From the NCBI RefSeq assembly GCF_021228795.1, contig NZ_CP089309.1, positions 2,294,001-2,358,000 of the forward strand: 64,000 nt of DNA, in the 5' to 3' direction. Each line of letters begins with the position of its first letter. Within the stretch, counting starts at the first letter, position 1. The notes beneath the pieces were generated by a model, which saw only the letters and a program-made list of their open reading frames with translations, did not search any database and had not been told where the DNA came from. Below are positions 1,523-55,680 of this stretch, piece after piece. A program made the position numbers and the translations under genes. The stretch is from Thiocapsa bogorovii. Lineage in GTDB: Bacteria > Pseudomonadota > Gammaproteobacteria > Chromatiales > Chromatiaceae.

Positions 1523-1805
1523 TGAACCGCGTTTCGAGCGACATGCAACGTTCGAGAGGGCGTCGATGTCGGCGCGATTGGATGACTCGGCGCGACGCGG
1601 TTCAGGACGTTAAGACTAACGCATGACTCGGACCGGCTTCGAGGCAGGTAGGCACTCGGGGCTGGATCGGACTCGCCGCGGCCCTCGCGCAACACAATCA
1701 ATCCGATCTTTCTATCTCTTAAATCGCGTCGACTCCGGCGCTTACGAACCGCTGCGAGATCGAGACCGCATGAACACTGCGCATATTGTGCCGGACGCGA
1801 TTTAA
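1523..1805 (+). repeat. paired intergenic palindrome, composite 1 (accC/prmA junction)
   Basis: Two imperfect palindromes fill the accC-prmA gap. The first (1523-1604) has ends TGAACCGCG and CGCGGTTCA. The second (1719-1805) has ends TTAAATCGCG and CGCGATTTAA. About 115 nt separates them, the longest spacer seen in this family. The second unit ends on the base before the prmA ATG. The unit order (type I after the stop, type II before the start) is shared with the composites at 5812, 6771, 47135 and 55484. Confidence 0.8.
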
Positions 1806-2708
1806 ATGGGTTGGCTGCAGCTTTCGATCGAGGTGCCGAAACCGGACGCGGAGGAAATCGCCGCCGTCCTGGAAGACGGCGGCGCACTCTCCGTAACGCT
1901 CGCCGATGCCGCCGACGAACCCCAGCTCGAGCCGGGCCCGGGCGAGACGCCACTCTGGTCGCAGGTCAAGATTTCAGCCCTGTTCGATGCGGACCCCGAG
2001 AGCGAGGCACTGGTCGGCCGTTTGGTCGATCAACTGGTGCGTGAGCCGCGCTCCGGCGGTGCTTGTGGGCCTCGCGTCGAGCGGATCGAGGATCAGGTCT
2101 GGGAGCGGGTCTGGCTCGACACCTTCAAGCCGACCCGCTTCGGTCGGCGTCTTTGGGTCTGTCCGCACGGGCAGGATCCGGATGATCCGGAGTCCGTCGC
2201 CGAGGCCGTGGTCGTCGCGCTGGATCCGGGGCTGGCCTTCGGGACCGGGCATCATCCGACCACCGCGCTCTGTTTGGAGTGGCTCGACGGTACCGCGCTC
2301 GACGGCAAAACGGTTCTGGATTACGGCTGCGGCTCGGGGATCCTCGCGATCGCGGCGCTGCAACTTGGGGCTGCACAGGCGATCGCCGTCGATCATGACC
2401 CTCAAGCACTGGAGGCGACGCGGGACAACGCCCTTGCCAACGGGGTCGCCGACCGACTCGCGATCTACGGGCCGGATGAGGTGCCCGAGCTGAAGGTCGA
2501 TGTGACCATCGCCAACATCCTCGCCGGGCCGCTGATCTCGCTGGCCCCTCGGCTTGTCGAGTCGCTGCGACCGGGCGGCGCGCTGGCCGTCTCGGGCGTG
2601 CTTGCCGAGCAGGTCGAGACAATCCGCGCGGCCTATGGCGAGCGGATCGAGCTCGCACCGACACGCCTGCGCGAGGATTGGGCGCTCATCTGCGGGACGC
2701 GCCGGTAG
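1806..2708 (+). CDS. prmA: ribosomal protein L11 methyltransferase
   Basis: A 300-residue SAM-dependent methyltransferase that trimethylates ribosomal protein L11. The N-terminal half is the substrate-recognition domain starting MGWLQLSIEVPKPDAEEIA. The catalytic Rossmann half carries motif I VLDYGCGSGILAI (about residue 172) and the PrmA-typical IANILAGPL (about residue 243). GTGHHPTT is also present. The length equals the family norm (E. coli 293). The ATG follows directly after a TTTAA-ended palindromic repeat, so there is no ordinary Shine-Dalgarno outside that repeat. prmA next to dusB and fis is the standard gammaproteobacterial order. Confidence 0.97.
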   Translation: MGWLQLSIEVPKPDAEEIAAVLEDGGALSVTLADAADEPQLEPGPGETPLWSQVKISALFDADPESEALVGRLVDQLVREPRSGGACGPRVERIEDQVWERVWLDTFKPTRFGRRLWVCPHGQDPDDPESVAEAVVVALDPGLAFGTGHHPTTALCLEWLDGTALDGKTVLDYGCGSGILAIAALQLGAAQAIAVDHDPQALEATRDNALANGVADRLAIYGPDEVPELKVDVTIANILAGPLISLAPRLVESLRPGGALAVSGVLAEQVETIRAAYGERIELAPTRLREDWALICGTRR

Positions 2709-2709
2709 A

Positions 2710-4255: not shown

Positions 4256-5815
4256 ATGCAATCCATTCACCGCGCCCTGATCAGCGTGTCCGACAAGACC
4301 GGCCTCGCCGCCTTCGCCCGCGACCTTGCCGTCAAAGGCGTCGAGATCCTGTCCACCGGCGGAACCGCCCGGCTCCTCACCGAGCAAGGCATCCCCGTCA
4401 CCGAAGTATCCGACTACACCGGATTCCCGGAGATGATGGACGGTCGGGTCAAGACCCTGCACCCGCGCATCCACGGCGGCATCCTGGGGCGTCGCGGCGT
4501 CGACGACCGGGTCATGCGCGAGAACGAGATCAAGCCGATCGACCTGGTCGTCGTGAATCTCTACCCCTTCGAGCAGACGGTCGTCGATCCGTCCTGCGAT
4601 CTGGCCACGGCCATCGAGAACATCGACATCGGCGGCCCGACCCTGCTGCGCGCCGCGGCCAAGAACCACGCGTCCGTTTCCGTGGTCGTCGACTCGGCCG
4701 ACTACCCCCGTATCACCGCGGAGATCGCCGAGCACGGCGGAGTGAGCGAGGCCACGCGTTTCGATCTGGCGGTCAAGGCCTTCGAGCACACCGCCCGCTA
4801 CGACGGCGCCATCGCCAATTATCTCGGCGCAAAGCTCGCGACCGACACCCCCGGCGCCTTCCCGCGCACGCTGAGCCTGCAGCTCGCACGCAAGCAATCC
4901 ATGCGCTACGGGGAGAATCCGCATCAGAACGCGGCCTTCTACATCGAGCACGGCGACCTGGAGACGAGCATCGCCACCGCCAGCCAGATCCAAGGCAAGG
5001 CGCTGTCCTACAACAACATCGCCGATACGGATGCGGCGCTCGAGTGCGTGAAGCAGTTCTCCGAGGGTCCGGCCTGCGTCATCGTCAAGCACGCCAACCC
5101 CTGCGGTGTCGCACTGGGCGCCAACCTGCTCGAGGCCTACGAGCGCGCCTACAGCACGGACCCGGAATCGGCTTTCGGCGGCATCATCGCCTTCAACGGC
5201 GAGCTCGACGGCGAGACGGCCCGCACCATCGTCGAGCGTCAGTTCGTCGAGGTCATCATCGCACCGCGCGTGACCGCCGAGGCCAGCGAGGCGGTCGCAG
5301 CCAAAAAGAACGTCAGACTGCTCGAATGCGGCGAGTGGGACAGCGAGCTGGTCCACCGACTCGACTTCAAACGCGTCAACGGCGGTCTGCTGGTTCAGGA
5401 TGCCGACCTGCGCCTGACCGAAGCGCTGAAGACCGTCACCGAGCGCGCGCCGAGCGAGCAGGAGCTTTCGGACCTGCTCTTTACATGGCGGGTCGCCAAG
5501 TTCGTCAAATCCAACGCCATCGTCTACGGGCGCGACGCCATGACCATCGGTGTCGGCGCCGGCCAGATGAGCCGTGTGAACTCCGCACGCATCGCCTCCA
5601 TCAAGGCCGAGCAGGCGGGTCTCGTGGTCGCCGGCGCCGTCATGGCCTCGGACGCCTTTTTCCCCTTCCGCGACGGGATCGACCAGGCCGCGGCGGCAGG
5701 GATCACGGCCGTGATCCAGCCCGGCGGCTCCATGCGCGACGAAGAGACCATTGCCGCGGCCAACGAGCACGGGATCGCGATGCTCTTCACCGGCATGCGG
5801 CATTTCAGGCATTAG
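4256..5815 (+). CDS. purH: bifunctional AICAR formyltransferase/IMP cyclohydrolase
   Basis: A 519-residue enzyme for the last two steps of de novo IMP synthesis. The N-terminal MGS-like cyclohydrolase domain runs from [11 protein letters not shown] through the STGGTARLL and GGRVKTLHP-type region. The C-terminal formyltransferase domain has the catalytic KHANPCG (about residue 279), SAFGG and KSNAIVY. The end FTGMRHFRH is typical. The stop TAG (5813-5815) lies inside the first unit of a palindromic repeat. purD lies two genes on, with an lpxA-family gene in between, so this is a split purHD arrangement. Confidence 0.97.
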
Positions 5816-6001
5816 ATCGCGTCCGGACCGACAGGCACTGTTTTCGTTTCGGCGAGGCCTTGGAGCCACCAGCCCAGGCCGGAGTCGACGCGATTTAAGT
5901 CTTTATTTTTTATTCTTTGAACCGCGTCGACTCAGAGCTTTCATGACGCGCCGACCTCGATCGACGCCATCACCTTCTTGACTCACACAGGACGCGGTTC
6001 A
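5812..6001 (+). repeat. paired intergenic palindrome, composite 2 (purH/lpxA junction)
   Basis: Unit I (5812-5898) runs from TTAGATCGCGTCC to GACGCGATTTAA and contains the purH stop codon. A 17-nt AT-rich spacer with TTTATTTTTTATT follows. Unit II (5916-6001) runs from TTTGAACCGCGTCGACTC to GACGCGGTTCA and ends on the base before the lpxA ATG. The whole intergenic region is therefore made of the repeat. Confidence 0.85.
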
Positions 6002-6775
6002 ATGGGCATCCACCCGACGGCCATCATCGAAGACGGCGCCGAGCTGCATCCCTCGGTCACTGTCGGTCCCTATTCGATCATCGAGTCCGGGGCCGTCGTC
6101 GGCGAAGGCTGCCGGATCGAGTCCTGCGTGCGCATCTTCGGCGCGACGCGGATGGGCGCACACAACCGGGTCTGTCACGGGGCGACGCTCGGCTCGGAGC
6201 CCCAGGATCTCGGCTTTCGCCCGGAACTGGCGCGGCCGCTCGTGATCGGCGACCACAATCACTTCAAAGAAGGCGTCAACATCAGTTGCGGCATCAAGTC
6301 CGAGGCGGGCACCCGCATCGGCAGCCACAATTATTGGATGGCCTTCTCGCATGCGGGTCATGACTGCATCGTCGGCGACCACAACATCTTCGCCAACACG
6401 GCCACGCTCGCCGGTCATTGCGAGGTCGCGGATCGGACCTTCCTCTCGGGACAGGTCGCCGTGCATCAGTTCTGCCGGATCGGCTCCTATGCCATGGTCG
6501 CCGGGGTCACGGGTGTCGCGCAGGACGTGCCGCCGTTCGCCCTGGTCGACGGCCATCGCGCGCGCATCGTGGGTCTGAACGTGGTCGGCTTGCGGCGCGG
6601 CGGCTTCTCGCAGGAGCAGCGCACGCGCATCAAGGCGGTCTATCGACTGGTCTTCCGCTCCGGGCTGCGCCCGGGCGAGGCACTCGCCCGAGCCGAGCAG
6701 GAGTACCCAGGCCCGGAGACTCAATCCATCGTCCAGTTCATTCAGTCGAGCCGGCGCGGCGTCGTCTCGTTTTAA
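6002..6775 (+). CDS. lpxA: acyl-[ACP]--UDP-N-acetylglucosamine O-acyltransferase (LpxA family)
   Basis: A 257-residue left-handed beta-helix acyltransferase, the first step of lipid A synthesis. Hexapeptide repeats start at [17 protein letters not shown]. The catalytic histidine lies in [13 protein letters not shown], near the usual position 125. The C-terminal half is helical. The length matches LpxA (262 in E. coli). Oddities: it stands between purH and purD rather than in the lpxD-fabZ-lpxA-lpxB cluster, and the nucleotide-side motif reads GSEPQDLGF instead of the commoner GEPPQDLKY. It may be a second, divergent LpxA copy. Both gene borders are palindromic repeats, and the repeat supplies the stop codon TAA. 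Confidence 0.85.
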
Positions 6776-6966
6776 ACCGCGTCCAGAGCGAAATGCTGAT
6801 TCGTGAGTGAGATAGACGTTGGCTGCATCCACGACCCTTAGCCGGGACGCGGTTTAAAATAATTTATTTTTTAATCGTTTAAACCGCGCCGGCTCCAGCG
6901 CTCGTCAAATCTGCCGGAGCCGATCCCATCCCAAAACATCGCATACCGCGCTGAGCGCGGTTTAAA
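6771..6966 (+). repeat. paired intergenic palindrome, composite 3 (lpxA/purD junction)
   Basis: This is the clearest member of the family. Unit I (6771-6858) runs TTTAAACCGCGTCC to GGACGCGGTTTAAA, and its TAA is the lpxA stop. The spacer (6859-6877) is almost pure A/T. Unit II (6878-6966) runs TTTAAACCGCGCCGGCTCC to GCGCGGTTTAAA, ending 10 nt before the purD ATG. Both units align with the corresponding units at 47135-47329 over their whole length, not only at the ends. Confidence 0.9.
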
Positions 6967-15007: not shown

Positions 15008-15784
15008 TCATCCTAAAAAGAGCAGTTAAACCTTGCCTCGAGTGATCCAAGCCGCTGAAATATCGGCGCAAGGAGGTCCCCATGAGCAACCCGATCCCTC
15101 ACCCGCAGGGTGAACCCGAAACCACCGCATTGGTACCGCATGCCGGCCCGGTTGCGGTGGACACGTTTGGCGGGCGCGTCCACGTCGAGTGGGATGCGCA
15201 GGCGGCGGTCACCCCGCTGGGGCAGCTGCCGTTCTTCACCGAGTTTTTGCGCCTGGGCGGGCGCTTCGATGCCTGGGTCGAGAGCTGCCCGCTGAAGCTG
15301 ACCAGCCCGAACGCCCCGAGCACGCGCGACGTTCTGGGTACCGCCATCCTGGCGGTGCTGTCCGGGCATCAGCGCTATGCCCACATCAGTGCCCTGCGCG
15401 GCGACACCATCAACGCCGCCCTGCTGGGCATGGAGGCGGTGGTGAGCGAGGACTCGGTGCGCCGCAACCTCGGCAAGCTCGATGAAGCCGACGGGGTGGC
15501 CTGGTTGCAGAACCACCTGGACGCCTGCGTGGCGCCGGTGCCGGGCGTGCCCTGGATTCTCGATGCCGACGTGACGGTCAAGCCGCTCTACGGGCATCAA
15601 GAGGGTGCGGTCAAAGGCTACAATCCGCACAAGCCGGGTCGGCCCTCGCACACCTACCATACCTATTTCGTCGCCGGTCTGCGTCTGATCCTGGACGTGG
15701 AGGTGCTCCCCAGGTGTCAGGATAGATGTCGCCTCCCTTTGGGAGAATGTGTGGGAGGATGGGGCATCACCGACCCGGGGCTTT

Positions 15785-15848
15785 GCGCCCTCCGGGGTCA
15801 GCCGGGAAGGAGCCCGAAGGGCGACTGACGGCTGACCCCGGAGGGCGC
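15785..15848 (+). repeat. 19-bp perfect inverted repeat upstream of orfA in IS3 copy A
   Basis: Arms GCGCCCTCCGGGGTCAGCC (15785-15803) and GGCTGACCCCGGAGGGCGC (15830-15848) pair perfectly, with a second small hairpin in the loop. It lies between the left end and orfA and could block transcription entering from outside. In copies B and C one base of the orfA-proximal arm is missing. Confidence 0.7.
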
Positions 15849-15884
15849 GGCGCAAGCGCCCCGAGGCATGAGAAGGCGAGCGAC

Positions 15885-16403
15885 ATGACAACCTATTCGA
15901 GCGAACTGAAAGACAGCATCCTGACGAAGCTACTGCCGCCCAACAACGTCGGCGTCCCGCAGTTGGCCGCGCAAACCGGCATCCCGCGCGACACCCTCTA
16001 CGGCTGGCGGCGCGAGGCGTTGGGTCGGGCGCGTCGACCACGGGCATCGACGGTGCCTGCCGGGACGCTCGGCAGCGAGGAGAAGTTTGCCGTGGTGATG
16101 GAGACCGCCACCCTCAATGAGTTGGAGCTGGGCGCGTACTGTCGGCGCAAGGGCCTGTTCGCCGAGCAGATCAGCGCGTGGCGCACGACCTGCCAGCAGG
16201 CCAATGCGCCGCTGACGAGCACGACCGAGCGGGCCGAGCGGCGCGCCGAGCAGGCGGAGATCGTGCGCCTGGGTCGGGAGTTGCAGCGCAAGGACCGGGC
16301 CTTGGCCGAAGCCGCCACGTTGCTGGTGCTCCAAAAAAAAGTCCGGGCGATCTGGGAGGAGCCAGAGGACGCTCGCTCGCCTATGAGCGGCGCGTACAAG
16401 TGA
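15885..16403 (+). CDS. IS3-family OrfA (copy A)
   Basis: A 172-residue helix-turn-helix protein. The N-terminal HTH reads GVPQLAAQTGIPRDTLYGWR, and a leucine-rich helix near the C-terminus ends in LLVLQKK. The A8 run in CTCCAAAAAAAAGTCC (16333-16340) is the slippery site. A -1 shift there reads QKSPGD and continues into orfB to make the OrfAB transposase. Without the shift, OrfA ends ...MSGAYK and its TGA overlaps an orfB GTG (GTGA). Confidence 0.88.
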   Translation: MTTYSSELKDSILTKLLPPNNVGVPQLAAQTGIPRDTLYGWRREALGRARRPRASTVPAGTLGSEEKFAVVMETATLNELELGAYCRRKGLFAEQISAWRTTCQQANAPLTSTTERAERRAEQAEIVRLGRELQRKDRALAEAATLLVLQKKVRAIWEEPEDARSPMSGAYK

Positions 16404-17452
16404 GCGAGTACATCGCCCAAGCCTGTGCCGAGGGCGCCCGCCTGAGTCGCGCCTGCGCCGCCGTGGGGCTGTCCGAGCGCACCCTGCAGCGCTGGCGTCG
16501 CGACGGGGCGATCGGCGGCGACGGGCGCACGCGCGAGCACCGGACCGAAGGCGCGGTACGCACCCCGGCCAATCGGCTCTCGCCCCACGAGCGACAAGCC
16601 GTCCTCACAGCCGCCAACGCGCCCAGGTTCGCGAGCTTGAGTCCGCATCAGATCGTCCCGGCGCTGGCCGACGAGGGCTGCTACCTGGGATCCGAGTCGA
16701 CCTTCTACCGCGTGCTGCGCGACGCCGGGCAGCTCGCCCGCCGCGGTCGCGCCAAGGCGCCGACACGGGTGCGCCCGCAGCCGCTGGAGGCGACCGGGCC
16801 GAATCGGGTTTGGAGCTGGGACATCACCTACCTGGCCAGTACCGTGCAGGGGATGTTCTTCTATCTGTACCTGATCATGGATGTCTACAGCCGCAAGATC
16901 GTCGGCTGGGAGGTCTACCCGCAGGAGTCCGCCGCGCACGCCGCCAGCGTCCTGCACAAGGCCTACCTGCGCGAAGGCGTGCACCCGGGCACACTGGTCC
17001 TGCACTCGGACAACGGCTCGCCGATGAAAGGCGCCACCATGCTGGTGATGCTCCAGCGCCTCGGGGTCGTGCCGTCCTTCAGTCGCCCGGCCGTGAGCAA
17101 CGACAACCCCTACTCGGAGTCGCTGTTCAACACCGTCAAGGGTCGCCCGGACTTCCCCTCCGATCCCTTCGACGGCGTCGAGGCGGCACGCCGCTGGATG
17201 ACGACATTCACCGCCTGGTACAACACCATCCACCTGCACAGCGCGCTGAAGTTCGTCACCCCGGCACAGCGCCATCGCGGCGAGGATGTCGACCTGCTGG
17301 CACGGCGCGACGCGCTCTATCAAGCCGCCAGAGACGACAACCCGACGCGCTGGTCCGGACCCACCCGCAATTGGACGCCGCCCGCTTCGGTCTTGCTCAA
17401 CCCGGGAAAACCCCCTCGTGAACAGGAGAAGGCCGACACGAACATGACATGA
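16400..17452 (+). CDS. IS3-family OrfB, integrase core (copy A)
   Basis: A 350-residue catalytic half of the transposase. Retroviral-type integrase core: WSWDITYLAS (first Asp), HSDNGSPMKG (second Asp) and NPYSESLFNTVKG (Glu). The N-terminal part is HTH-rich, with VGLSERTLQRWRRDG. GTG 16400 overlaps the orfA stop, so OrfB could be made alone or as an OrfAB fusion through the upstream A8 slip. The frame is intact. Confidence 0.88.
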   Translation: MSEYIAQACAEGARLSRACAAVGLSERTLQRWRRDGAIGGDGRTREHRTEGAVRTPANRLSPHERQAVLTAANAPRFASLSPHQIVPALADEGCYLGSESTFYRVLRDAGQLARRGRAKAPTRVRPQPLEATGPNRVWSWDITYLASTVQGMFFYLYLIMDVYSRKIVGWEVYPQESAAHAASVLHKAYLREGVHPGTLVLHSDNGSPMKGATMLVMLQRLGVVPSFSRPAVSNDNPYSESLFNTVKGRPDFPSDPFDGVEAARRWMTTFTAWYNTIHLHSALKFVTPAQRHRGEDVDLLARRDALYQAARDDNPTRWSGPTRNWTPPASVLLNPGKPPREQEKADTNMT

Positions 17453-18483
17453 TTGATGCGACAACTACCTTGACACTTACCGTGCTGGACGGCAACCAAA
17501 CCGCGTCCAAGTACAGCGCGCCGGGGCTGTGGGAGTTGCTCGCGCGCCTGCCGCGGGCGCACTGGCCGCTGTGCATTCGCGGCGACCGCGATTGGGGCAC
17601 CCAAGCCAACATGGCGCGTGCCGAGCAGGAGGGGATCCCGTATCTGTTCAAGCTGCGCATGACCTCCAAGGTCAAGCAGACCGTCGAGCGCCTGATGCGC
17701 GATGCCGAGTGGTGCGATGCCGGTCAAGGCTGGCAGGGGGCCGAGACGACCCTGCGTCTGTCGGGCTGGAGCCGTGCCCGGCGCGCCGTCGTGCTGCGCC
17801 GGCGCATCAAGGCCGACCTGGCCGTCGTCGAGCAGGGTGATCCCGAGCAGCTGCGCCTGAGCTTCGCCGAGCTCACCGACGAGACGATCGTCTACGAGTA
17901 CGCCGTGCTGGTGACCTCGCTGCCCCATGAGATCCTGAGCGTGGCGCAACTCTATCGCGATCGCGCCGACGCGGAGAATCCCTTCGACGAGCTCAAGAAC
18001 CATTGGGGCTGGGGCGGCTTCACCACCCGCGACATCAAGCGCTGCCGCTTCATGGCGCGCATCACCGCCTTGACCTACAACTGGTGGAGCCTGTTCGTGC
18101 GCCTGGCCGACCCGACTCGGCACACCGAGGCGATCACCAGCCGCCCGCTGCTGCTCAGCGCACCGGCACGACTGACCCGTCACGGCGGGCAGACGCGCCT
18201 GACCATCAGCCATCCCCATGCCGAAGCCGGGTGGGTGGAGGCGACCTGCCGCGAGATCACGGCCTTCTTCAACACGCTGCGCCGAACTGCGGAGCAGTTG
18301 AGTCCCCTGCAACGCTGGTACCGGCTCCTCTCGCGGGCGCTGGTGAAGTATCTCAACGGCCGCCAATTGCAGCCGCCGGCGGTGTTACCGGCGCCGGCGT
18401 AGCCGCCGAACCGCCGGTATGTGTACTCGCCCGCGGGCCGAAAACGCTCCGCGACGGGCGCTAACTGCTCTTTTTAGGTTCAT

Positions 18484-18784
18484 CGGCTCGAGGCGGCAGC
18501 GCCGGGCCCAGCTGTACCAGCGGGTGAGCAACGCCTCGGCCTCCTCGCGGGAGTCGGCCAGGCGGAAGATCTCGCGCAGGCTCTCCTTGATGCGGTAGGC
18601 CCGGTGGGTCTTGAGGTTGAGGCGGCGCAGATCGAGGTACTGGCGCAGCTGCCGACGGCTCCAGTCCTGTTGATCCTTGAGCCAGATGTAGCGGCTGCGC
18701 TTGAGCGCGGGCGTGGCTTTGACCTCCGCGCGGCGCACCGCATCCACGGCCTGATTGGCGAGCTGGATGAGGTGGAATTCATCG
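18484..18784 (-). pseudogene. ISL3 transposase, middle fragment
   Basis: It reads DEFHLIQLANQAVDAVRR then RYIWLKDQQDWSRRQLRQ and CRLEPM. This is the middle of an ISL3 transposase, between the second catalytic residue and the C-terminal glutamate block. It joins ...LPWANITF from 20567 across the CCTT duplication (gene strand) of IS3 copy B to give NITF-DEFHL in frame, and it joins 15007 at its other end. Confidence 0.85.
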
Positions 18785-18818
18785 AAGGCGGTAAGTGTCA
18801 AGGTAGTTGTCGCATCAA

Positions 18819-19871
18819 TCATGTCATGTTCGTGTCGGCCTTCTCCTGTTCACGAGGGGGTTTTCCCGGGTTGAGCAAGACCGAAGCGGGCGGCGTCCAA
18901 TTGCGGGTGGGTCCGGACCAGCGCGTCGGGTTGTCGTCTCTGGCGGCTTGATAGAGCGCGTCGCGCCGTGCCAGCAGGTCGACATCCTCGCCGCGATGGC
19001 GCTGTGCCGGGGTGACGAACTTCAGCGCGCTGTGCAGGTGGATGGTGTTGTACCAGGCGGTGAATGTCGTCATCCAGCGGCGTGCCGCCTCGACGCCGTC
19101 GAAGGGATCGGAGGGGAAGTCCGGGCGACCCTTGACGGTGTTGAACAGCGACTCCGAGTAGGGGTTGTCGTTGCTCACGGCCGGGCGACTGAAGGACGGC
19201 ACGACCCCGAGGCGCTGGAGCATCACCAGCATGGTGGCGCCTTTCATCGGCGAGCCGTTGTCCGAGTGCAGGACCAGTGTGCCCGGGTGCACGCCTTCGC
19301 GCAGGTAGGCCTTGTGCAGGACGCTGGCGGCGTGCGCGGCGGACTCCTGCGGGTAGACCTCCCAGCCGACGATCTTGCGGCTGTAGACATCCATGATCAG
19401 GTACAGATAGAAGAACATCCCCTGCACGGTACTGGCCAGGTAGGTGATGTCCCAGCTCCAAACCCGATTCGGCCCGGTCGCCTCCAGCGGCTGCGGGCGC
19501 ACCCGTGTCGGCGCCTTGGCGCGACCGCGGCGGGCGAGCTGCCCGGCGTCGCGCAGCACGCGGTAGAAGGTCGACTCGGATCCCAGGTAGCAGCCCTCGT
19601 CGGCCAGCGCCGGGACGATCTGATGCGGACTCAAGCTCGCGAACCTGGGCGCGTTGGCGGCTGTGAGGACGGCTTGTCGCTCGTGGGGCGAGAGCCGATT
19701 GGCCGGGGTGCGTACCGCGCCTTCGGTCCGGTGCTCGCGCGTGCGCCCGTCGCCGCCGATCGCCCCGTCGCGACGCCAGCGCTGCAGGGTGCGCTCGGAC
19801 AGCCCCACGGCGGCGCAGGCGCGACTCAGGCGGGCGCCCTCGGCACAGGCTTGGGCGATGTACTCGCTCAC
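18819..19871 (-). CDS. IS3-family OrfB, integrase core (copy B)
   Basis: The predicted product is identical to that of copy A (350 residues), with the same WSWDITY, HSDNGSP and YSES catalytic blocks. GTG at 19871 overlaps the orfA stop. Intact. Confidence 0.88.
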   Translation of the reverse strand: MSEYIAQACAEGARLSRACAAVGLSERTLQRWRRDGAIGGDGRTREHRTEGAVRTPANRLSPHERQAVLTAANAPRFASLSPHQIVPALADEGCYLGSESTFYRVLRDAGQLARRGRAKAPTRVRPQPLEATGPNRVWSWDITYLASTVQGMFFYLYLIMDVYSRKIVGWEVYPQESAAHAASVLHKAYLREGVHPGTLVLHSDNGSPMKGATMLVMLQRLGVVPSFSRPAVSNDNPYSESLFNTVKGRPDFPSDPFDGVEAARRWMTTFTAWYNTIHLHSALKFVTPAQRHRGEDVDLLARRDALYQAARDDNPTRWSGPTRNWTPPASVLLNPGKPPREQEKADTNMT

Positions 19872-20386
19872 TTGTACGCGCCGCTCATAGGCGAGCGAGC
19901 GTCCTCTGGCTCCTCCCAGATCGCCCGGACTTTTTTTTGGAGCACCAGCAACGTGGCGGCTTCGGCCAAGGCCCGGTCCTTGCGCTGCAACTCCCGACCC
20001 AGGCGCACGATCTCCGCCTGCTCGGCGCGCCGCTCGGCCCGCTCGGTCGTGCTCGTCAGCGGCGCATTGGCCTGCTGGCAGGTCGTGCGCCACGCGCTGA
20101 TCTGCTCGGCGAACAGGCCCTTGCGCCGACAGTACGCGCCCAGCTCCAACTCATTGAGGGTGGCGGTCTCCATCACCACGGCAAACTTCTCCTCGCTGCC
20201 GAGCGTCCCGGCAGGCACCGTCGATGCCCGTGGTCGACGCGCCCGACCCAACGCCTCGCGCCGCCAGCCGTAGAGGGTGTCGCGCGGGATGCCGGTTTGC
20301 GCGGCCAACTGCGGGACGCCGACGTTGTTGGGCGGCAGTAGCTTCGTCAGGATGCTGTCTTTCAGTTCGCTCGAATAGGTTGTCAT
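19868..20386 (-). CDS. IS3-family OrfA (copy B)
   Basis: The predicted product is identical to copy A OrfA (172 residues). The A8 slippery run is preserved, so a programmed -1 shift is still needed to make OrfAB. Intact. Confidence 0.88.
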   Translation of the reverse strand: MTTYSSELKDSILTKLLPPNNVGVPQLAAQTGIPRDTLYGWRREALGRARRPRASTVPAGTLGSEEKFAVVMETATLNELELGAYCRRKGLFAEQISAWRTTCQQANAPLTSTTERAERRAEQAEIVRLGRELQRKDRALAEAATLLVLQKKVRAIWEEPEDARSPMSGAYK

Positions 20387-27058: not shown

Positions 27059-27158
27059 GAGGTGGCCGGCTTGCCAAAGCCCAGGGTGCGATGAGCATAG
27101 GCGACGTGCCCGGAAGCCCCACCCGGTTGTTTGGGGTTCGTGCTGGCAGCGGTAGTGG

Positions 27159-30903: not shown

Positions 30904-31107
30904 GGAAACGTCTCATGATGAGAGAGACGAGGAGGACACTGGTATCGATCTTTAAGGTCTCGGGCTCCGCAAGTCGCCGGCAGGCCCGAGACATCGATGT
31001 TCTGATTTCCGATCTTCGATCTCTAACCCGCGTCTCGCCGAGGTTCTTGTCTGCAGCGAGGCTGTTATCGCCTGGTACCCAGTCTACGAGCACCCGACGC
31101 GGTCTAG

Positions 31108-32841: not shown

Positions 32842-32859
32842 CTAGATGTGACGAGCCCC

Positions 32860-37385: not shown

Positions 37386-37484
37386 CTCGGGCCGTCACAC
37401 CACATGTAACGCATTCTCCGGCCACCCGATGAACCGGGCGCCGGAGCCGTGCATCCAACGTACACCGCGAGGAACCGAACCGTG

Positions 37485-38555
37485 ATGATCCCGATCGATA
37501 TCCGGCCCGACAAGCTCACCCAAGAGATGCTGGACTATTCGCGCAAGCTCGGCCAAGGCATGGAAAACCTGCTCAACGCCGAGAAGATCGACACCGGCGT
37601 AAGCCCGAAGCAAGCGGTCTACACCGAAGACAAGCTGGTGCTGTTCCGCTACGACACACCCGAGGGCGTGACCCCCGACCCCGTCCCGTTGCTGATCGTC
37701 TACGCCCTGGTCAACCGTCCCTACATGACCGACATCCAGGAAGACCGCTCGACCATCAAGGGTCTGTTGGCGACCGGGCAGGACGTCTATCTGATCGACT
37801 GGGGCTACCCGGATCAAGCCGACCGGGCGATCACGCTCGACGATTACATCAACGGCTATATCGACAGCTGCGTGGATCACATCCGCGAGGCGCACGGGGT
37901 CGAGAAGATCAACATCCTCGGCATCTGCCAGGGTGGCGCCTTCAGCCTCATGTACACCTCGATGCATCAGGACAAGGTCAACAGCCTGGTGACCATGGTC
38001 ACGCCGGTCGACTTCAAGACCCCGGACAATCTCCTGTCCGCCTGGGTGCAGAACGTCGATATCGACCTCGCGGTCGACACCATGGGAAACATCCCGGGCG
38101 AGCTGTTGAACTGGACCTTCCTCTCGCTCAAGCCATTCAGCCTGACCGGACAGAAATACGTCAACATGGTCGACGTGCTCGACGACCCGGACAAGGTGAA
38201 GAACTTTCTGCGCATGGAGAAGTGGATCTTCGACAGCCCGGATCAGGCCGGAGAGACCTTCCGTCAGTTCATCAAGGACTTCTATCAGCGCAACGGTTTC
38301 ATCAACGGCGGCGTCATGTTGGCGGGCCGGGAGGTGGACCTGAAGAACATCACCTGCCCAGTCCTGAACATCTATGCGATGCAGGACCACCTGGTGCCGC
38401 CGGATGCCTCCAAGGCGCTGAAAGGTTTGACCGGCAGCAAAGACTATACCGAGTTGGCCTTCCCCGGCGGCCACATCGGCATCTATGTCAGCGGCAAAGC
38501 GCAGAAAGAGGTCACCCCGGCCATCGGGAAGTGGCTGAACGCGCACTCGGCTTAA
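37485..38555 (+). CDS. phaC: class III PHA synthase catalytic subunit PhaC
   Basis: A 356-residue alpha/beta-hydrolase-fold polymerase joining 3-hydroxybutyryl units from CoA onto PHB. The lipase-like box is LGICQGGAFS with the nucleophilic cysteine (about residue 149). The aspartate is in MQDHLVPPDAS and the histidine in FPGGHIGIY. The sequence from IDIRPDKLTQEMLDYSRKLG onward is very close to A. vinosum PhaC, from memory. ATG 37485 (MIPID) follows an in-frame GTG at 37482. The stop TAA is shared with the start of a palindromic repeat half-unit. Confidence 0.97.
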   Translation: MIPIDIRPDKLTQEMLDYSRKLGQGMENLLNAEKIDTGVSPKQAVYTEDKLVLFRYDTPEGVTPDPVPLLIVYALVNRPYMTDIQEDRSTIKGLLATGQDVYLIDWGYPDQADRAITLDDYINGYIDSCVDHIREAHGVEKINILGICQGGAFSLMYTSMHQDKVNSLVTMVTPVDFKTPDNLLSAWVQNVDIDLAVDTMGNIPGELLNWTFLSLKPFSLTGQKYVNMVDVLDDPDKVKNFLRMEKWIFDSPDQAGETFRQFIKDFYQRNGFINGGVMLAGREVDLKNITCPVLNIYAMQDHLVPPDASKALKGLTGSKDYTELAFPGGHIGIYVSGKAQKEVTPAIGKWLNAHSA

Positions 38556-38590
38556 ACCGCGTCCAGAGCGAGATGCTCACTTTCGAGGCA
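38552..38590 (+). repeat. half unit of the TTTAAACCGCG repeat family after phaC
   Basis: TTAAACCGCGTCCAGAGCGA with GATGCTCACTTTCGAG matches the left part of the type I units at 6771 and 47135, beginning at the phaC stop codon. The right half is missing: the sequence switches into the hairpin at 38592 and the end of the radical SAM gene. Confidence 0.75.
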
Positions 38591-40511: not shown

Positions 40512-42246
40512 CCCGAATATTTCATAAAAAAGGGCGACTCTCGTTCAACCCATTGATAAAATGGCTGTTCCGCCAAGAACGCTTCGGAAGAAGCTAAACG
40601 AGGTCGCCCATGCCCGAGTCTACCCCGGAACAGCTGCGTTTTCCCCCGGTCGCCGGTTTCACGGTCCGCGGCGACTTCGACGGCGGCGCCATGTCGTCTG
40701 ACTTTGGCCCCATGATTCTGCGCGGGGTTGATCGGCAGATCGGCCTGACCGAGCGGTTGAGCGCAGCGATCGATGATTGGCGCCATCCGTCCTACACCAC
40801 CCATCCGATGCGTGAGCTGATCGCGCAACGGGTCTACCAGATCGCCTGTGCTTACGAAGACGGCAACGACGCCAATGCGCTGCGCCGTGATGCGCTGTTC
40901 AAGCTGGGGCTGGAGCGCAAGCCGCTGGATGCGACGACGGACCTGGCCAGCGGGCCGACCTTCTCGCGTTTGGAGAATGGGGTCGGCGCGCGCGACCTCT
41001 ACCGCATGGCGCAGGCCTTCGTCGAGGCCTTCATCGCCAGCTACCCGAAGGCGCCGCAGGTGATCGTGCTCGATATGGACCACTCCGAAGACGCCACCCA
41101 TGGCCAGCAGGAGTTCGCGTTCTACAATCATCACTACGGCAACCATTGCTACTTGCCGCTGTTTCTCTTCGAGGGCCTCTCGGGGAAGTTCATCACCGCG
41201 GTGCTGCGTCCCGGCAAGCGCCCCACCGGCGCCGAGAACGCGATGATCCTCAAGCGCGTGCTCAAGCGGCTGCGGGCCGCGTGGCCACGCACACGCATCA
41301 TCCTGCGCGGCGACGGACACTTCTCCAACCCCGAGTTGATGGCCTTGGCGATGGCCGATCCGTTGACGGATTTCATCTTCGGCCTGGCGGGTAACCGGGC
41401 TCTCACGCCACGGGCCGAGCCGTTCTTGGCCGACGCCCGCAAGCTCCATGCGCTGCGCATCGAGAACGCCCGGCGCGCCGACGCCGACGTACCCGAGCGG
41501 ACCCGCACCTACCACGAGGTTGACTACCGTGCCGGTTCCTGGCCCGGCGCGTGTCGGACCATCCTCAAAGCCGAGGTGACGGCGCGCGGCGACAACCTCC
41601 GCTTCGTCGTCACCTCCTTGGACTTGCCCAGTCCCGAGTGCGTCTACCGCGATCTGTACTGCGCGCGCGGCCAGGACGAGAACTTCATCAAAATGATCAA
41701 GAACGATCTGGCCAGCGATCGCACTTCCGACAGCACCTTCTTGGCCAATCAGATGCGCTTGTTCTTCTCCTGCGCCGCTTACGTCTTGCACCAAACGCTG
41801 CGCACCGAGGTCCTCGTCGGCACGGAACTGGCCAACGCCCAGCCTGCCACCGTGATCATCAAACTGTTCAAGCTCGCCGTGCGCGTGGTGCAGTACAAAG
41901 ACCGCGTGCGCCTGCACCTGCCCTCGAGCTGTCCGGTCAAGACGCTGTTGCAGCAGGTCACCGAGAGGCTCTTCAACGCGCAGCCCGGGCGGCGCCCGCC
42001 TGAGACGCACATACATCCCCGCACGGGGATTTCAGCACGCGCACGACGACTATGCCCACCTCGGGCAGGGCATCGTACGCCTGCGCGGCGACAAAACTAC
42101 TCGTGCCCCGTTGATCAAGCCCGTTGCCGCTCGGTATTTCCACCATTCAACCCCCGCGGCGTCCCGGTCATCGCCCTCGGTGACGCCCAGCGCCGCGCAA
42201 ATCCGCGAGGCCAGTGTCGGCTGTGTCGGTTTATGAAACATCCGGG
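40512..42246 (+). mobile_element. IS1380-family element, copy 2
   Basis: A 1735-bp copy in the same orientation as copy 1, flanked by CTAG (40508-40511, 42247-42250). It is nearly identical to copy 1: a V-to-A change near 41571, and one extra base near 42003 (CCTGAGACG for CCTGGACG). It sits upstream of the radical SAM gene, so it may separate that gene from its promoter. Confidence 0.9.
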
Positions 42247-42250
42247 CTAG
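40610..42250 (+). CDS. IS1380-family transposase, C-terminally extended by a frameshift (copy 2)
   Basis: The same core as copy 1 (LDMDHSEDAT, LRGDGHFSNPE, YREK block). It lacks the same C near the C-terminus and so also overruns the copy 3 stop, reaching 546 residues and ending at the right terminus of the element. The tail frame differs from copy 1 because of the additional base. Confidence 0.85.
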   Translation: MPESTPEQLRFPPVAGFTVRGDFDGGAMSSDFGPMILRGVDRQIGLTERLSAAIDDWRHPSYTTHPMRELIAQRVYQIACAYEDGNDANALRRDALFKLGLERKPLDATTDLASGPTFSRLENGVGARDLYRMAQAFVEAFIASYPKAPQVIVLDMDHSEDATHGQQEFAFYNHHYGNHCYLPLFLFEGLSGKFITAVLRPGKRPTGAENAMILKRVLKRLRAAWPRTRIILRGDGHFSNPELMALAMADPLTDFIFGLAGNRALTPRAEPFLADARKLHALRIENARRADADVPERTRTYHEVDYRAGSWPGACRTILKAEVTARGDNLRFVVTSLDLPSPECVYRDLYCARGQDENFIKMIKNDLASDRTSDSTFLANQMRLFFSCAAYVLHQTLRTEVLVGTELANAQPATVIIKLFKLAVRVVQYKDRVRLHLPSSCPVKTLLQQVTERLFNAQPGRRPPETHIHPRTGISARARRLCPPRAGHRTPARRQNYSCPVDQARCRSVFPPFNPRGVPVIALGDAQRRANPRGQCRLCRFMKHPG

Positions 42251-42587
42251 ATCCGGCAGTTGACCGCTTCGTGCTTCATGCAAGGTCTTGACGGTCTTAG
42301 CGATCGCGCTTATCACACGGCTCACCGGTTGGGCGAAGGCCGCCTGATGCCGCGGGGGTGTCGCCCTCGACTCGACCCGTGGCATGATCCGGTGCTGGAC
42401 CGACCGGAGATCATTACCGACACTCCGACCTTGCCAGGTTGCCGGGTATGCACCTCGAGATCACACAGACTGCACACGACGCCGAGTCTCGACCGGTCAT
42501 TGCCGCGCGCGTCGCATCGCGCCTCGGCCACGACCCCGTTGTGGATCGAAGGCGTGTCGGCGCAGGCCCATGCGGAGTGGCCGGACA
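42251..42587. other. gap between IS1380 copy 2 and the DUF2126 gene
   Basis: 337 nt without a supported gene. DUF2126 proteins often carry an N-terminal transglutaminase-like domain or follow a gene for one. None is seen here, so that part may have been lost or moved when the IS arrived. A short plus-strand frame from 42449 has no recognisable content. Confidence 0.4.
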
Positions 42588-47134: not shown

Positions 47135-47329
47135 TTTAAACCGCGTCCCTAGCAAGATGCTCATTCTCGAGTGAGCTCCACGTTTGGTGTGTCCACAACC
47201 ATTGGCGGAGACGCGGTTTAATCTGATTGATCTTTTAGTATTTTAAATCGCGCAGGCTCCAGCGGTCTTCAAGTCTGCAGGGGCCGACCCCATCCGAAGC
47301 CGTCGCATGCCGCGCCGGGCGCGGTTTAA
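47135..47329 (+). repeat. paired intergenic palindrome, composite 4 (DUF58/unknown gene junction)
   Basis: Unit I (47135-47221) is TTTAAACCGCGTCC to GACGCGGTTTAA. The AT-rich spacer is 47222-47241. Unit II (47242-47329) is TTTAAATCGCGCAGGCTCC to GCGCGGTTTAA. Both units align along their whole length with composite 3 at 6771-6966, 40 kb away, so the family spread as a two-unit block. Confidence 0.88.
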
Positions 47330-52483: not shown

Positions 52484-53620
52484 TTAGCCGCGTGCGCGAA
52501 TTCGATGGGTATGTATCCCCATGATCATCCCGAATCCGGCCATCAGGGTCACCATCGAGGTCCCGCCGTAGCTGATTAGCGGCAGCGGAACGCCGACCAC
52601 CGGCAGCAAGCCGGTGACCATGCCGGTGTTGACGAAGACGTAGACGAAAAACACTAGGGTCAGCGCACCGGCCAGGAGACGCCCGTACCGATCCTGCGCC
52701 CGCGCCGCGATCACCAGACCACGCAGGATGATAAAAAGGTAGAGGGCGAGTAGGGCCAGGATCCCGGTAAACCCGAACTCCTCGCCGATGACGGCGAAGA
52801 TGAAATCGGTATTGCGCTCGGGCAGAAACTCCAAATGTGACTGGGTGCCGTTCAGCCAACCTTTTCCGTCGATCCCGCCCGAGCCGATCGCGATCGTGGA
52901 CTGAATGATGTGATAGCCGGACCCGAGGGGATCGGACTCCGGATTCAGGAAGGTGAGCACACGATCGCGCTGATAGTCATGCAAACCCATCCAGACGAGC
53001 GGGGTCACGGCTGCCGCAATGGCTCCGAGCGAAAGGATCATGCCCCAACCCATGCCGGCCACGAACAGCACCATGACGCCCGCACTGGCGACCAGCAACG
53101 AGGTCCCCAGATCCGGTTGCTTGGCGATCAGCACGACCGGGATCAGGGTCGCCACGGCCGCGAGCACCACCCACACGAGCTTCGGCGGCAAGGCGCGAGC
53201 GCTTAGCATCCAGGCAAGCAACATGGGCACCGCGAGCTTCAGAAGTTCCGAGGGCTGAAAGCGCACGACCCCGAAATCCAGCCAGCGCTGCGCCCCCTTG
53301 CCGACATCTCCGACCAAAAGCACTGCGATCAGCATCGCCACGCCGACCCCGTAGAGCAGCGGCGACCAGCTGCGAAGGCGCGCGGGGGGGACCTGTGCAA
53401 CCGCGATCATCAGGCCGAAGGCGACCCCGAGCCGAACCAACTGCCGCTCGACCGCGGCAGGATCCTGGTCGCTCGCACTGAAGAGCACCATCAGCCCGAA
53501 ACCGCATAGGGCCAGCAGGGCCACCAGCAAGGGTGCGTCCAGGTGGATCCGTTGCCAGAAACCGGGACGCCCCTGGTCCAAGGCATCGTCCGGAAAATGA
53601 CAGCTCGACCTAGTCGCCAC
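52484..53620 (-). CDS. rodA: SEDS peptidoglycan polymerase RodA
   Basis: A 378-residue polytopic membrane protein of the elongasome that polymerises glycan strands with PBP2. Ten or so hydrophobic segments. Motifs are WLDFGVVRFQPSELLKLAVP, PDLGTSLLV, LNPESDPLGSGYHIIQS, FLPERNTDFIFAVIGEEFGF and PLPLISYGGTSM. Start GTG 53620 overlaps the mrdA stop by 11 nt and gives family length (370 in E. coli). A TTG further in is possible. It is co-transcribed with mrdA. Confidence 0.94.
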   Translation of the reverse strand: MATRSSCHFPDDALDQGRPGFWQRIHLDAPLLVALLALCGFGLMVLFSASDQDPAAVERQLVRLGVAFGLMIAVAQVPPARLRSWSPLLYGVGVAMLIAVLLVGDVGKGAQRWLDFGVVRFQPSELLKLAVPMLLAWMLSARALPPKLVWVVLAAVATLIPVVLIAKQPDLGTSLLVASAGVMVLFVAGMGWGMILSLGAIAAAVTPLVWMGLHDYQRDRVLTFLNPESDPLGSGYHIIQSTIAIGSGGIDGKGWLNGTQSHLEFLPERNTDFIFAVIGEEFGFTGILALLALYLFIILRGLVIAARAQDRYGRLLAGALTLVFFVYVFVNTGMVTGLLPVVGVPLPLISYGGTSMVTLMAGFGMIMGIHTHRIRARG

Positions 53621-55484
53621 GCCCGCCTCCGGCATCACTCGGCTCGCTCGGCTCGTTCGCGACGCCGAGATAGGCATCCATAATGCGACGCGCGACGGGT
53701 GCCGCAGTGGCGCCGCCCCCGCCACCGTTCTCGACGATGACAGCAAGCGCGATGCGCGGATCCTCGACCGGCGCGAACGCAACGAACAGGGCGTGGTCCT
53801 TGAGATGCTTGGGGAGCGTCGCCGCGTTGTAGCGCTGATTCTGACCAAGGCTGAAAACCTGCGAGGTCCCCGTCTTACCGGCGATGCGGTATTCGGTACT
53901 GCGGATGCGCCGGGCGGTGCCGGATTCGACGACCTTGGCCATCGCGTCGATGATCAGATCCCATTGATGTTCGTCGGCAAGATCGATGGTGTGCGAGACC
54001 ATCGGCAACTGCTCGGCAGCAGACGCACCGGGAGCCTGAGCGGCACGCGCGACCTGAGGGCGAATGACCTTGCCGTGATTGGCGACCGCCGCTGTGGCGA
54101 CGGCCAATTGCAGCGGCGTCGCCAGGAAAGAGCCCTGCCCGATACCGACGATCAGGGTCTCGCCGGGATACCAGGCCTGTTTGCGCACCCGTCGCTTCCA
54201 GTCACGCGTCGGCATCAGTCCGCCCAGCTCGCCGGCGACATCGATTCCGGTCAAGGCGCCGAAACCGAAGTCCGAGAGAAAGCCCGAGAGTCGGTCGATC
54301 CCCAACCGGTTGGCCAGATCGTAGAAGTAGACGTCGCAGGACTGCACCAGTGCTTGCTCCAAGCTCAAGGCACCATGGCCGCCGCGACGCCAGCAGCGAA
54401 ACCGATGGGAGTGTCCAGGCAGGCTGAACGCCCCTGGGCAATAGGTCGCACGCCGCGAGGTCGTCACCCCCTCAGCAAGTCCGGCGAGTGCGACAAACTG
54501 CTTGATGGTCGAGCCCGGTGGATACTGCCCGCGCACCGCTCGGTTAAACAACGGCTTGTCCGGCGATCTCAGCAAGGCTTGATAATCGGTCTGACTGATC
54601 CCTTCCACGAACAGATTGGGGTCAAAGCTCGGATTACTGACGAGGGCCAAGATGCCGCCGTTGCGGGGATCCAGGGCGACCACCGCACCGCGCTCCTCGC
54701 CGAGCGCTTCCTTCGCCGCTTGCTGCAGACCGATGTCCAGGTACAGATGGAGATCCTTCCCCGATACGGGCGGCTGACTCTCGAGTGTGCGGATCACCCG
54801 GCCGCGGGCGTTGACCTCCACCTGCTGGTAGCCGACCCGACCGTGCAGCAGTGCCTCATGCGCCTTCTCCAGACCACTCTTGCCGATGAAGTGGCTCCCG
54901 GCGTAATTGCTCTTGTCGATCCGGGCGAGCTCCTGCTCGTTGATCCGCCCGACATAACCGAGCACGTGGGCGGTGTGCTCGCCGAGCGGATAGGTGCGCA
55001 CCAGCTCCGCACGGATATCGACACCGGCGAAACGATGCGCGTCGACCGCGAATCGCGCAACCTCGGCCGGCGTGAGATTCAGCCGGATCGGCACCCCCTG
55101 AAAACGCATCCGCTGTCGCTTTTGGCGCTCGAAGCGGGCACGATCCCGGGCGTCGATCGGGATGACTCGGGACAGCGCCTCGATAGTGGCATTCAGATCA
55201 TCCACCTTCTCGATCGTGATCTCCAACGAGAACGACGGGTGATTGTCCGCGAGCAAGACCCCGTTCGCGTCGTAGACGAGTCCACGTGCCGGCGGCAAGG
55301 GCTGGACCTTGACCCGGTTGTCGCGGGACAGCACCGAGAAATGGTCGTGCTGATCGACCTGGAGGTGCATCAGTCGCACCACGACGAGTCCAAGCGCGGC
55401 GATCACCAGGGCCGCTGCGATCCATGCACGGATCGCGATCAGGCGGCTCTCGCGTTTACGGTCTTCGAGATTGGCTTCGAGCAT
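53610..55484 (-). CDS. mrdA: penicillin-binding protein 2
   Basis: A 624-residue class B transpeptidase that crosslinks lateral wall peptidoglycan with RodA. One N-terminal membrane segment (AWIAAALVIAALGLVVVRLM). The dimerisation domain is next. The transpeptidase domain has the nucleophile in PPGSTIKQFVALAGL (STIK), SCD (VQSCDVYFYDLA) and KTGTSQV. Length matches the family (633 in E. coli). The ATG (55484) is directly next to a TTTAA-ended palindrome, so the repeat forms the 5' UTR. Confidence 0.96.
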   Translation of the reverse strand: MLEANLEDRKRESRLIAIRAWIAAALVIAALGLVVVRLMHLQVDQHDHFSVLSRDNRVKVQPLPPARGLVYDANGVLLADNHPSFSLEITIEKVDDLNATIEALSRVIPIDARDRARFERQKRQRMRFQGVPIRLNLTPAEVARFAVDAHRFAGVDIRAELVRTYPLGEHTAHVLGYVGRINEQELARIDKSNYAGSHFIGKSGLEKAHEALLHGRVGYQQVEVNARGRVIRTLESQPPVSGKDLHLYLDIGLQQAAKEALGEERGAVVALDPRNGGILALVSNPSFDPNLFVEGISQTDYQALLRSPDKPLFNRAVRGQYPPGSTIKQFVALAGLAEGVTTSRRATYCPGAFSLPGHSHRFRCWRRGGHGALSLEQALVQSCDVYFYDLANRLGIDRLSGFLSDFGFGALTGIDVAGELGGLMPTRDWKRRVRKQAWYPGETLIVGIGQGSFLATPLQLAVATAAVANHGKVIRPQVARAAQAPGASAAEQLPMVSHTIDLADEHQWDLIIDAMAKVVESGTARRIRSTEYRIAGKTGTSQVFSLGQNQRYNAATLPKHLKDHALFVAFAPVEDPRIALAVIVENGGGGGATAAPVARRIMDAYLGVANEPSEPSDAGGGRGD

Positions 55485-55680
55485 TAAACCGCGCTCGGTG
55501 ATGTAGTACTCGACCCCGGGAGGCTCCCCGTGGCTTTGCGGCTTCGGTAAACCTTCGAGTCGGCGCGGTTTAAGTCAGAAAAATTCAAAATTTCATACCG
55601 CGTGTGCTGAAACGGACGTTGGCGCGATGGCGGTCGAGCCGAGACGAGATGGGTGCATGTCATGCCGAAAGCGGCCTAGT
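55484..55680 (-). repeat. paired intergenic palindrome, composite 5 (mreD/mrdA junction)
   Basis: On the minus strand, after the mreD stop comes a decayed type I unit (55680 to about 55594; it contains TAGGCCGCTTTCGG and GACATGCACC, ending CACGCGGTATGA). An AT-rich spacer with AAATTTTGAATTTTT is next. A good type II unit (55573-55484) follows from TTAAACCGCGCCGACTC to GAGCGCGGTTTAA. The last A is the first base of the mrdA ATG. Confidence 0.75.

What the first reader, a model, noticed from the sequence alone, without database searches (positions are those of the whole stretch)
1523..55680. Paired palindromic blocks that fill gene junctions in a fixed order and supply stop and start contexts
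Seen directly: five intergenic regions (1523-1805, 5812-6001, 6771-6966, 47135-47329, 55484-55680) consist of two imperfect palindromes with TTTAAACCGCG...CGCGGTTTAA ends and an AT-rich spacer. A distinct type I unit always follows the upstream stop, and a distinct type II unit always precedes the next start. The orientation always follows transcription. Stop codons of purH, lpxA and phaC lie in the unit end, and prmA, lpxA and mrdA start codons abut it. Composites 3 and 4 align over their full length although 40 kb apart. Half units occur after phaC and moxR. A REP-like element, a MITE targeting gene ends or a transcription end-plus-start module are all possible. I know of no named family with this two-part, orientation-locked pattern.
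Basis: partly seen in the sequence, partly recalled or inferred. Interest (0 to 1): 0.82.

Follow-up and report, generated by a model that had tools for sequence, protein, structure and literature searches.

The report
Paired mobile hairpins between bacterial genes
The repeated hairpin pairs are small parasitic DNA elements, relatives of an IS630-type transposon, that insert at TA and so often land in stop codons without changing the protein, which explains why they seem to supply the stop and start signals of genes.

Summary
The repeats are real, but they are not a fixed-order gene-junction module. [quoted passage not shown] Types I and II are one element in opposite orientations. A composite is an inverted pair of units of about 87 nt around a spacer of about 21 nt that is 83% A+T. 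Related species give empty sites: the element is AACCGCG...CGCGGTT, inserted at TA (mostly YTAR) with TA on both sides. Because it begins with A, insertion into a TAA or TAG stop codon rebuilds TAA, on either strand. Among YTAR sites within 25 nt of gene 3' ends, 390 of 531 are stop codons, which explains the abutting stops. IS630-family elements with matching terminal repeats occur in other Chromatiaceae; this genome has only distant IS630 relatives. The claimed orientation lock fails: 21 type-I-first versus 12 type-II-first at tandem junctions, and pairs also lie between convergent and divergent genes. Against: 11 of 26 empty orthologues end in TGA. Function beyond selfish spread is unproven.

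The parts
1522..1605 (.). unit of composite 1 (outer TIR end on the left), between the gene ending at 1519 and prmA
   Evidence: arms with 4 mismatches
1719..1805 (.). second unit of composite 1 (outer TIR end on the right); abuts the start codon at 1806; 113 nt from the first unit
5812..5898 (.). left unit of composite 2; contains the TAG stop (5813-5815) of the gene 4256-5815 (purH)
5899..5916 (.). AT-rich spacer of composite 2 (18 nt)
5917..6002 (.). right unit of composite 2; its last base is the A of the lpxA ATG at 6002
6772..6857 (.). left unit of composite 3; contains the TAA stop (6773-6775) of lpxA
   Evidence: site empty in G002 and G008
6858..6878 (.). AT-rich spacer of composite 3 (21 nt)
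6879..6965 (.). right unit of composite 3, upstream of purD
31023..31107 (.). single diverged unit; an insertion sequence with end CCCGAATATTTCATAAA begins at 31108, directly at its CTAG end
38552..38587 (.). 36-nt remnant of a composite at the stop of gene 37449-38555; nearly complete at the same junction in G010
47136..47221 (.). left unit of composite 4
47222..47242 (.). AT-rich spacer of composite 4 (21 nt)
47243..47329 (.). right unit of composite 4
55484..55573 (.). well-formed unit of composite 5, abutting the start (minus strand) of gene 53610-55484 (mrdA)
55592..55680 (.). degenerate second unit of composite 5
   Evidence: read by eye; not recovered by the unit scan with up to 6 arm mismatches

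Best explanation
The blocks are copies of a non-autonomous transposable element (MITE) of the IS630/Tc1-mariner kind. The mobile DNA is AACCGCG...CGCGGTT, either a single unit of about 87 nt or an inverted pair of units (about 193-196 nt) joined by an AT-rich spacer of about 21 nt. An IS630-family transposase is inferred to recognise the outer 25-35 nt and insert the element at a TA, preferably C/T-TA-A/G, leaving TA on both sides. Because the element starts with A on both strands, insertion into TAA or TAG gives TA+A = TAA again, so the protein upstream is unchanged; at TTAA shared by two convergent genes both stops are rebuilt. In a 64% G+C genome such sites near gene 3' ends are mostly stop codons, and insertions inside genes are lost. 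That yields the observed 'unit begins at the stop, next gene starts just after' pattern. Shown: copy number, empty sites, target, TIR match, spread of the whole pair. Inferred: mobilisation in trans, later loss of the transposase in this species, and selective neutrality as the reason for 3'-end placement.
For: (1) 309 exact arms versus 4 reversed-control matches genome-wide; patchy in the genus: 7 of 10 other members have 192-956, three (G005, G006, G009) have 0-4. (2) Of 164 placed flank pairs, five rows at four loci have exactly 4 nt and no unaligned flank at the empty site. Three of the four loci hold TA: G010#17 and its filled G008 orthologue versus G001 (TTAA); G010#32 versus G001 (CTAA -> CTAA...TTAA); G001#28 versus G010 (TTAG -> TTAA...TTAG, an 88-nt single unit). 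They fit a TA target with one outer base kept on each side. lpxA-purD is empty in G002 and G008, holds the pair in G000, G004, G007 and a single unit in G010, G001. (3) IS630-family IS of 1274 bp counting both TA (three copies in G135, differing at 0-1 base; one in G166), all four flanked C-TA..TA-G; NF033545 E 3.7e-52, PF13358 E 8e-23. From position 15 on, beyond the pattern used to find the IS ends, 180 composite outer ends match eight such ends at 0.49-0.57 identity, against 0.25-0.28 shuffled, 0.29-0.34 inner ends, 0.18-0.30 for two unrelated IS630 ends; best single case 32 of 36. (4) Occupancy per YTAR: stop 77/390, 1-10 nt 12/61, 11-25 nt 12/80, 26-50 nt 4/101, >100 nt 1/310, coding 1/1145. 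(5) The same two C-terminal ends flank TTAA in G001 and the insertion in G010; 13 of 18 stop-located genes with an empty orthologue have at least one with a TA-type stop (background 478 of 1358 stops), protein length unchanged in 18 of 26 comparisons. (6) In G001 whole pairs are 97.4-99.5% identical over 193-196 nt, spacer included.
Against: In 11 of 26 empty-orthologue comparisons the stop is TGA, not a TA-type stop. The fourth exact empty site reads CAAG, and others read TCAG or CTGA. These need later mutation or occasional non-TA targets. From sequence alone a TA duplication cannot be told from an element that carries one TA. No intact transposase of the matching subfamily was found in the window's genome (best relative 28% identity) or in the other carriers of its genus; the only near-full-length copy there (68%, one in-frame TGA) is in G006, which has no copies of the element. 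Covariation of the arms also fits selection for a hairpin.
Confidence: 0.92

Rival explanations
1. A host-maintained transcription end-plus-start module: type I acts as terminator or 3' hairpin, type II as leader of the next gene, in fixed order.
For: Units fold better than shuffles (z -2.7 to -4.8 for six units); the spacer is AT-rich; arms covary within units (paired 0.87 against 0.63 expected at position 3, 0.83 against 0.46 at position 11); at purH-lpxA positions 3 and 6 of both arms changed together among seven species while a stop codon was kept, except for one one-sided change in the window's own copy.
Against: Order is not fixed (21 against 12, p 0.16) and pairs also occur at convergent (17 of 57) and divergent (7 of 57) junctions; presence is patchy between species and between orthologous junctions; whole pairs have multiplied recently in G001; stop codons are no more occupied per site than the next 10 nt.
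Confidence: 0.05
2. A REP/BIME-type repeat moved by a RAYT (Y1) transposase.
For: Inverted pairs, high copy number and 3'-end placement resemble REPs; GTAG REP ends are reported to provide stop codons (PMC3733652, section read); 14 Y1 transposase matches in the genome.
Against: Unit 86-88 nt against 20-40 bp; no unpaired tag; of 37 Y1 loci read (of 100 matches in 11 genomes) 7 hold a unit, six of these about 1.3 kb and one about 1 kb from the gene, none flanking it; Y1 genes occur in carriers and non-carriers alike. The ends match IS630 TIRs.
Confidence: 0.02
3. Five junctions duplicated recently within this chromosome.
For: Composites 3 and 4 align over their full length.
Against: Hundreds of dispersed copies exist, and empty sites in relatives are precise.
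Confidence: 0.01

Closest known systems
RUP of Streptococcus pneumoniae (with IS630-Spn1)
   Same: Small non-autonomous intergenic repeat with TIRs like those of an IS630-family element, TA target, about 110 copies, enriched between convergent genes (PMC2229807 and PMC3049150, passages seen).
   Different: RUP is a single 107-bp AT-rich element; here units of about 87 nt with G+C-rich ends are often paired in inverted orientation, and the parent IS subfamily was not found intact in the same genome.
Correia/NEMIS and ERIC elements
   Same: MITEs with TIRs and TA at the termini (PMC2229807 Table 1, passage seen).
   Different: Other hosts; not described in those passages as inverted unit pairs with a constant spacer. 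Sequence relatedness was not tested.
REP dimers / BIMEs (GTAG and CGTC families)
   Same: Inverted pairs with spacers, mostly downstream of genes; GTAG REP ends often provide a TAG stop (PMC3733652: abstract, passages and one section).
   Different: REPs are 20-40 bp with an unpaired tag; here 86-88 nt, no unpaired tag, IS630-type ends.
IS630-family insertion sequences (IS630, ISY100)
   Same: TA target duplicated on insertion (PMC2170065, passages seen); IS630 preference for TA in CTAG (title of Tenzen and Ohtsubo 1991, seen in that reference list).
   Different: The window's element has no transposase gene.

Membership tests
IS630-derived MITE | terminal inverted repeats matching an IS630-family IS | tested here: met
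   180 outer ends against eight IS ends, positions 15-36: 0.49-0.57 against 0.25-0.28 shuffled
IS630-derived MITE | insertion at TA with TA on both sides | tested here: met
   three of four exact empty sites: TTAA, CTAA, TTAG; contrary: CAAG at the fourth, TCAG and CTGA at less exact ones
IS630-derived MITE | short, without transposase gene, many dispersed copies | tested here: met
   about 87 or 193-196 nt; 309 exact arms
IS630-derived MITE | moved in trans by the IS630 transposase | not testable with these tools
   needs a transposition assay
IS630-derived MITE | parent IS in the same genome (usual, not required: parents can be lost) | tested here: not met
   best relative in G000 28% identity; complete copies in G135 and G166
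REP/BIME | 20-40 bp palindrome with unpaired GTAG or CGTC tag | tested here: not met
   units 86-88 nt in 103 of 124; the 12-bp arm is paired to its end
REP/BIME | association with a RAYT gene (GTAG REPs) | tested here: inconclusive
   no flanking units at the 37 Y1 loci read, of 100 matches
RUP, ERIC, NEMIS by sequence | sequence similarity to those elements | not tested
   their sequences were not fetched
intrinsic terminator module | terminates transcription in the direction of the upstream gene | not testable with these tools
   needs RNA 3'-end data; fixed orientation was tested and not met

The most novel reading that the evidence does not exclude
An inverted two-unit MITE whose terminal A makes insertion into TAA/TAG stop codons translationally silent on both strands, giving it a safe niche at the ends of even essential genes; the host may since have taken over the hairpins that now begin inside the stop codons, which would explain paired changes in the arms that keep a stop codon across species.
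Probability: 0.2. Interest if true: 0.6.

Novelty: new variant of a known kind. Interest (0 to 1): 0.42.

Why it matters
It gives a concrete, quantified reason why palindromic elements sit on stop codons: a TA target plus a terminal A rebuilds the stop, and in G+C-rich genomes stop codons are most of the target sites near gene ends. It also identifies a likely parent transposon for a large repeat family of purple sulfur bacteria, so mobility can be tested directly. Annotators should not read these blocks as conserved regulatory modules without such tests.

Tried and rejected
Searched for a parent transposon inside the sampled blocks by pairing orphan arms: nothing convincing; the one looked at, in G008, spans an ordinary biosynthetic gene judged by eye from its translation. 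IS630 loci of the genus: those whose copies I aligned, in G001 and G004, have unrelated ends; the G010 and one further pair gave no clear ends. Y1/RAYT genes: present in carriers and non-carriers, no flanking units at 37 of 100 matches read. Orientation lock: not held. Stop codon as a special target: occupancy equals that of the next 10 nt. Rfam at its gathering scores gave no match at the units. The plasmid collection gave no match for composite 3. Pfam found nothing in the 143-aa transposase fragment, although the full-length relative matches. A single match in Galliscardovia may be chance. Literature: the listings of searches showed no description of this repeat in Chromatiaceae; most listed papers were not opened, and the held library lacks most subscription papers.
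Full report
Check of the observation. The palindromic blocks are there. In the window the arm TTTAAACCGCG (up to 2 mismatches) occurs 29 times against a shuffle mean of 9.3. In the whole genome TTAAACCGCG occurs 309 times against 4 for the reversed control. The genome is one contig of 5,649,927 bases, the length given for strain BBS (Thiocapsa bogorovii), NZ_CP089309.1, in PMC10892978 (passage seen). In three sampled blocks of 400 kb (1.2 Mb) I found 124 units with up to 4 arm mismatches, against 5 with reversed and 7 with swapped arms; 103 of the 124 are 86-88 nt long. Composites 2, 3 and 4 are as described; composite 1 has a 113-nt gap and composite 5 only one well-formed unit.

What the composite is. 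Type I and type II are the same end in opposite orientation, with the shared motif around GCATACCGC..TGGRCGCGGTTTA pointing outward on both sides. Of the 124 units, 69 fall in 38 pairs and 55 are single by my rules; a relaxed partner was found at 8 of 2000 random places. In six blocks from four genomes (2.4 Mb) 90 strict pairs were found; 54 of 90 have a spacer of exactly 21 nt, the spacers are 83% A+T, and 57 of 90 combine one unit with T-A and one with C-G at stem position 11 (11 are T-A twice, 3 C-G twice, 19 other). The stem is 12 bp: pairing is most clearly above expectation at positions 1, 3, 6 and 11 and is not seen after 12 (340 distinct units; position 1 is partly the target's own symmetry). 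Six window units fold better than shuffles, and composite 3 can also fold as a whole, outer end to outer end.

Distribution. Among 10 other genomes of the genus, seven carry 192-956 exact arms on both strands and three carry 0-4; one genome of another genus (G028) carries 117; the other genomes of that search are near their own controls. A later search with an IS end of which about 38 nt are shared with the element also touched further genera of the family (15 of 146 genomes).

Empty sites. I placed flanks of elements among blocks of G000, G010, G001 and G008: 164 flank pairs. Five rows at four loci have an empty site of exactly 4 nt with no unaligned flank: TTAA in G001 where G010 and G008 hold a pair; CTAA in G001 where G010 has CTAAACC...GGTTTAA; TTAG in G010 where G001 has TTAAACC...GGTTTAG; and CAAG in G001 where G010 has CTAA...TTAG. 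In the first three the outer base on each side comes from the target and only TA is found on both sides, so the mobile part is AACC...GGTT at a TA. Less exact empty sites read TCAG and CTGA as well as TAA. At lpxA-purD the window's pair is absent from G002 and G008 and is a single unit in G010 and G001; at purH-lpxA a pair is present in the seven carriers whose junction was held (G003's was not) and absent from the three non-carriers, although G009 holds a sequence that could be a decayed remnant (by eye).

Why stops and starts abut. In the six blocks 99 of 216 elements have a stop codon exactly in an end, 114 are elsewhere between genes and 3 inside called genes; stops are 313 of 2027 non-coding YTAR sites. 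In the collapsed sequence the share of YTAR sites bearing an element with a YTAR left end is 77/390 at stop codons, 12/61 at 1-10 nt, 12/80 at 11-25, 4/101 at 26-50, 4/130 at 51-100, 1/310 beyond 100 nt, 26/326 nearer to a start within 50 nt, 24/660 nearer to a start but farther off, 1/58 in the remainder, and 1/1145 in coding DNA (54 of 216 elements have a left end that is not YTAR and are outside these rates, 24 of them at stops). So stop codons are not favoured over the bases just after them; they are most of the available sites (390 of 531 within 25 nt). Since the element begins with A, TAA and TAG both become TAA. Of 74 genes whose stop lies in an element end, 63 end in TAA, 10 in TGA, 1 in TAG. 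In 26 comparisons with an orthologue lacking the element the orthologue ends in TAA 11, TAG 4, TGA 11 times, the filled gene always in TAA; protein length is equal in 18 of 26. By gene, 13 of 18 have at least one TA-type orthologue against a 35% background (p 0.002); this overstates the strength, because some genes had several orthologues and some loci are counted from more than one genome. In G001 two convergent genes share TTAA; in G010 the pair inserted there and both C-terminal ends are kept in place.

The parent. A contig of Thiorhodococcus mannitoliphagus (L264) carried the outer end continuing into a longer repeat. A degenerate copy (L389) led to a transposase fragment and from it to relatives in 6 of 146 family genomes. 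G135 holds three copies of a 1274-bp element (0-1 difference) and G166 one, all flanked C-TA..TA-G; the G135 protein matches NF033545 (IS630 family) at 3.7e-52 and PF13358 at 8e-23. Apart from the two G100 ends, the loci were found through the protein. The pattern that placed the ends covers the first 14 nt, so I compared positions 15-36 alone: 0.49-0.57 identity against 0.25-0.28 shuffled, 0.29-0.34 for inner ends and 0.18-0.30 for two unrelated IS630 ends. The window's genome has only distant IS630 relatives (28%); G001 has a fragment with two stops, and G006, which lacks the repeat, a 68% copy with one in-frame stop. In G001 a composite sits inside the right end of that IS fragment, where complete copies read CTAG.

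Activity. In G001 pairs are 97.4-99.5% identical over 193-196 nt, spacer included, so the pair spreads as a whole; at 97% or more no pair was listed within the sampled parts of G000, G010 or G008. The 88-nt single unit with an exact empty site shows that single units also move, or that they arise by loss of one unit after insertion.

Orientation. At tandem junctions 21 of 33 typed pairs are type-I-first; 17 of 57 lie at convergent and 7 of 57 at divergent junctions, against 270 and 267 of 2033 gene neighbours in the same blocks, so convergent junctions are over-represented.

Known precedents. RUP of pneumococcus is the closest in kind (PMC2229807, PMC3049150, passages). For REPs, ends that provide a stop codon and closeness to 3' ends are described (PMC3733652, one section and passages). 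ISY100 shows TA duplication for this IS family (PMC2170065, passages). I did not see the stop-rebuilding logic or this paired architecture stated for IS630-type MITEs in the listings and passages named, which cover only an open library.

Limits. Gene calls are from my own simple caller. Starts are less certain than stops. Four genomes were sampled in 400-kb blocks, not whole. Arm covariation can reflect hairpin selection, matching transposase sites, or template-switch correction of palindromes (recalled, not tested).

Noticed in passing
window 31108-32847, 40512-42252, 62692-64000 (reverse): A repeated insertion sequence whose end CCCGAATATTTCATAAA follows CTAG or TTAG at most of its copies; one window copy and one at G000:4516870 begin directly at the end of a hairpin unit, as if the unit ends offer its target.
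   Followed up: partly
L404 1306-1500: A composite inserted inside the right end of a broken IS630 relative, its likely parent.
   Followed up: partly
G000:C1:2223194 onward: The unit end is followed by several tandem copies of CGGTTTAG, perhaps slippage at the element end.
   Followed up: no
G010 block 246883; L205 4412: Very short derivatives of about 26 and 68 bp that keep little more than the outer ends.
   Followed up: no
window 15707-20563 and 25281-27064: Long inverted and direct repeats of 99-100% identity (up to 1646 nt), probably insertion sequence copies.
   Followed up: no
window 60589-60836 (minus): Group II intron D1-D4-6 match (Rfam RF02005), with a tRNA gene at 62083-62153.
   Followed up: no
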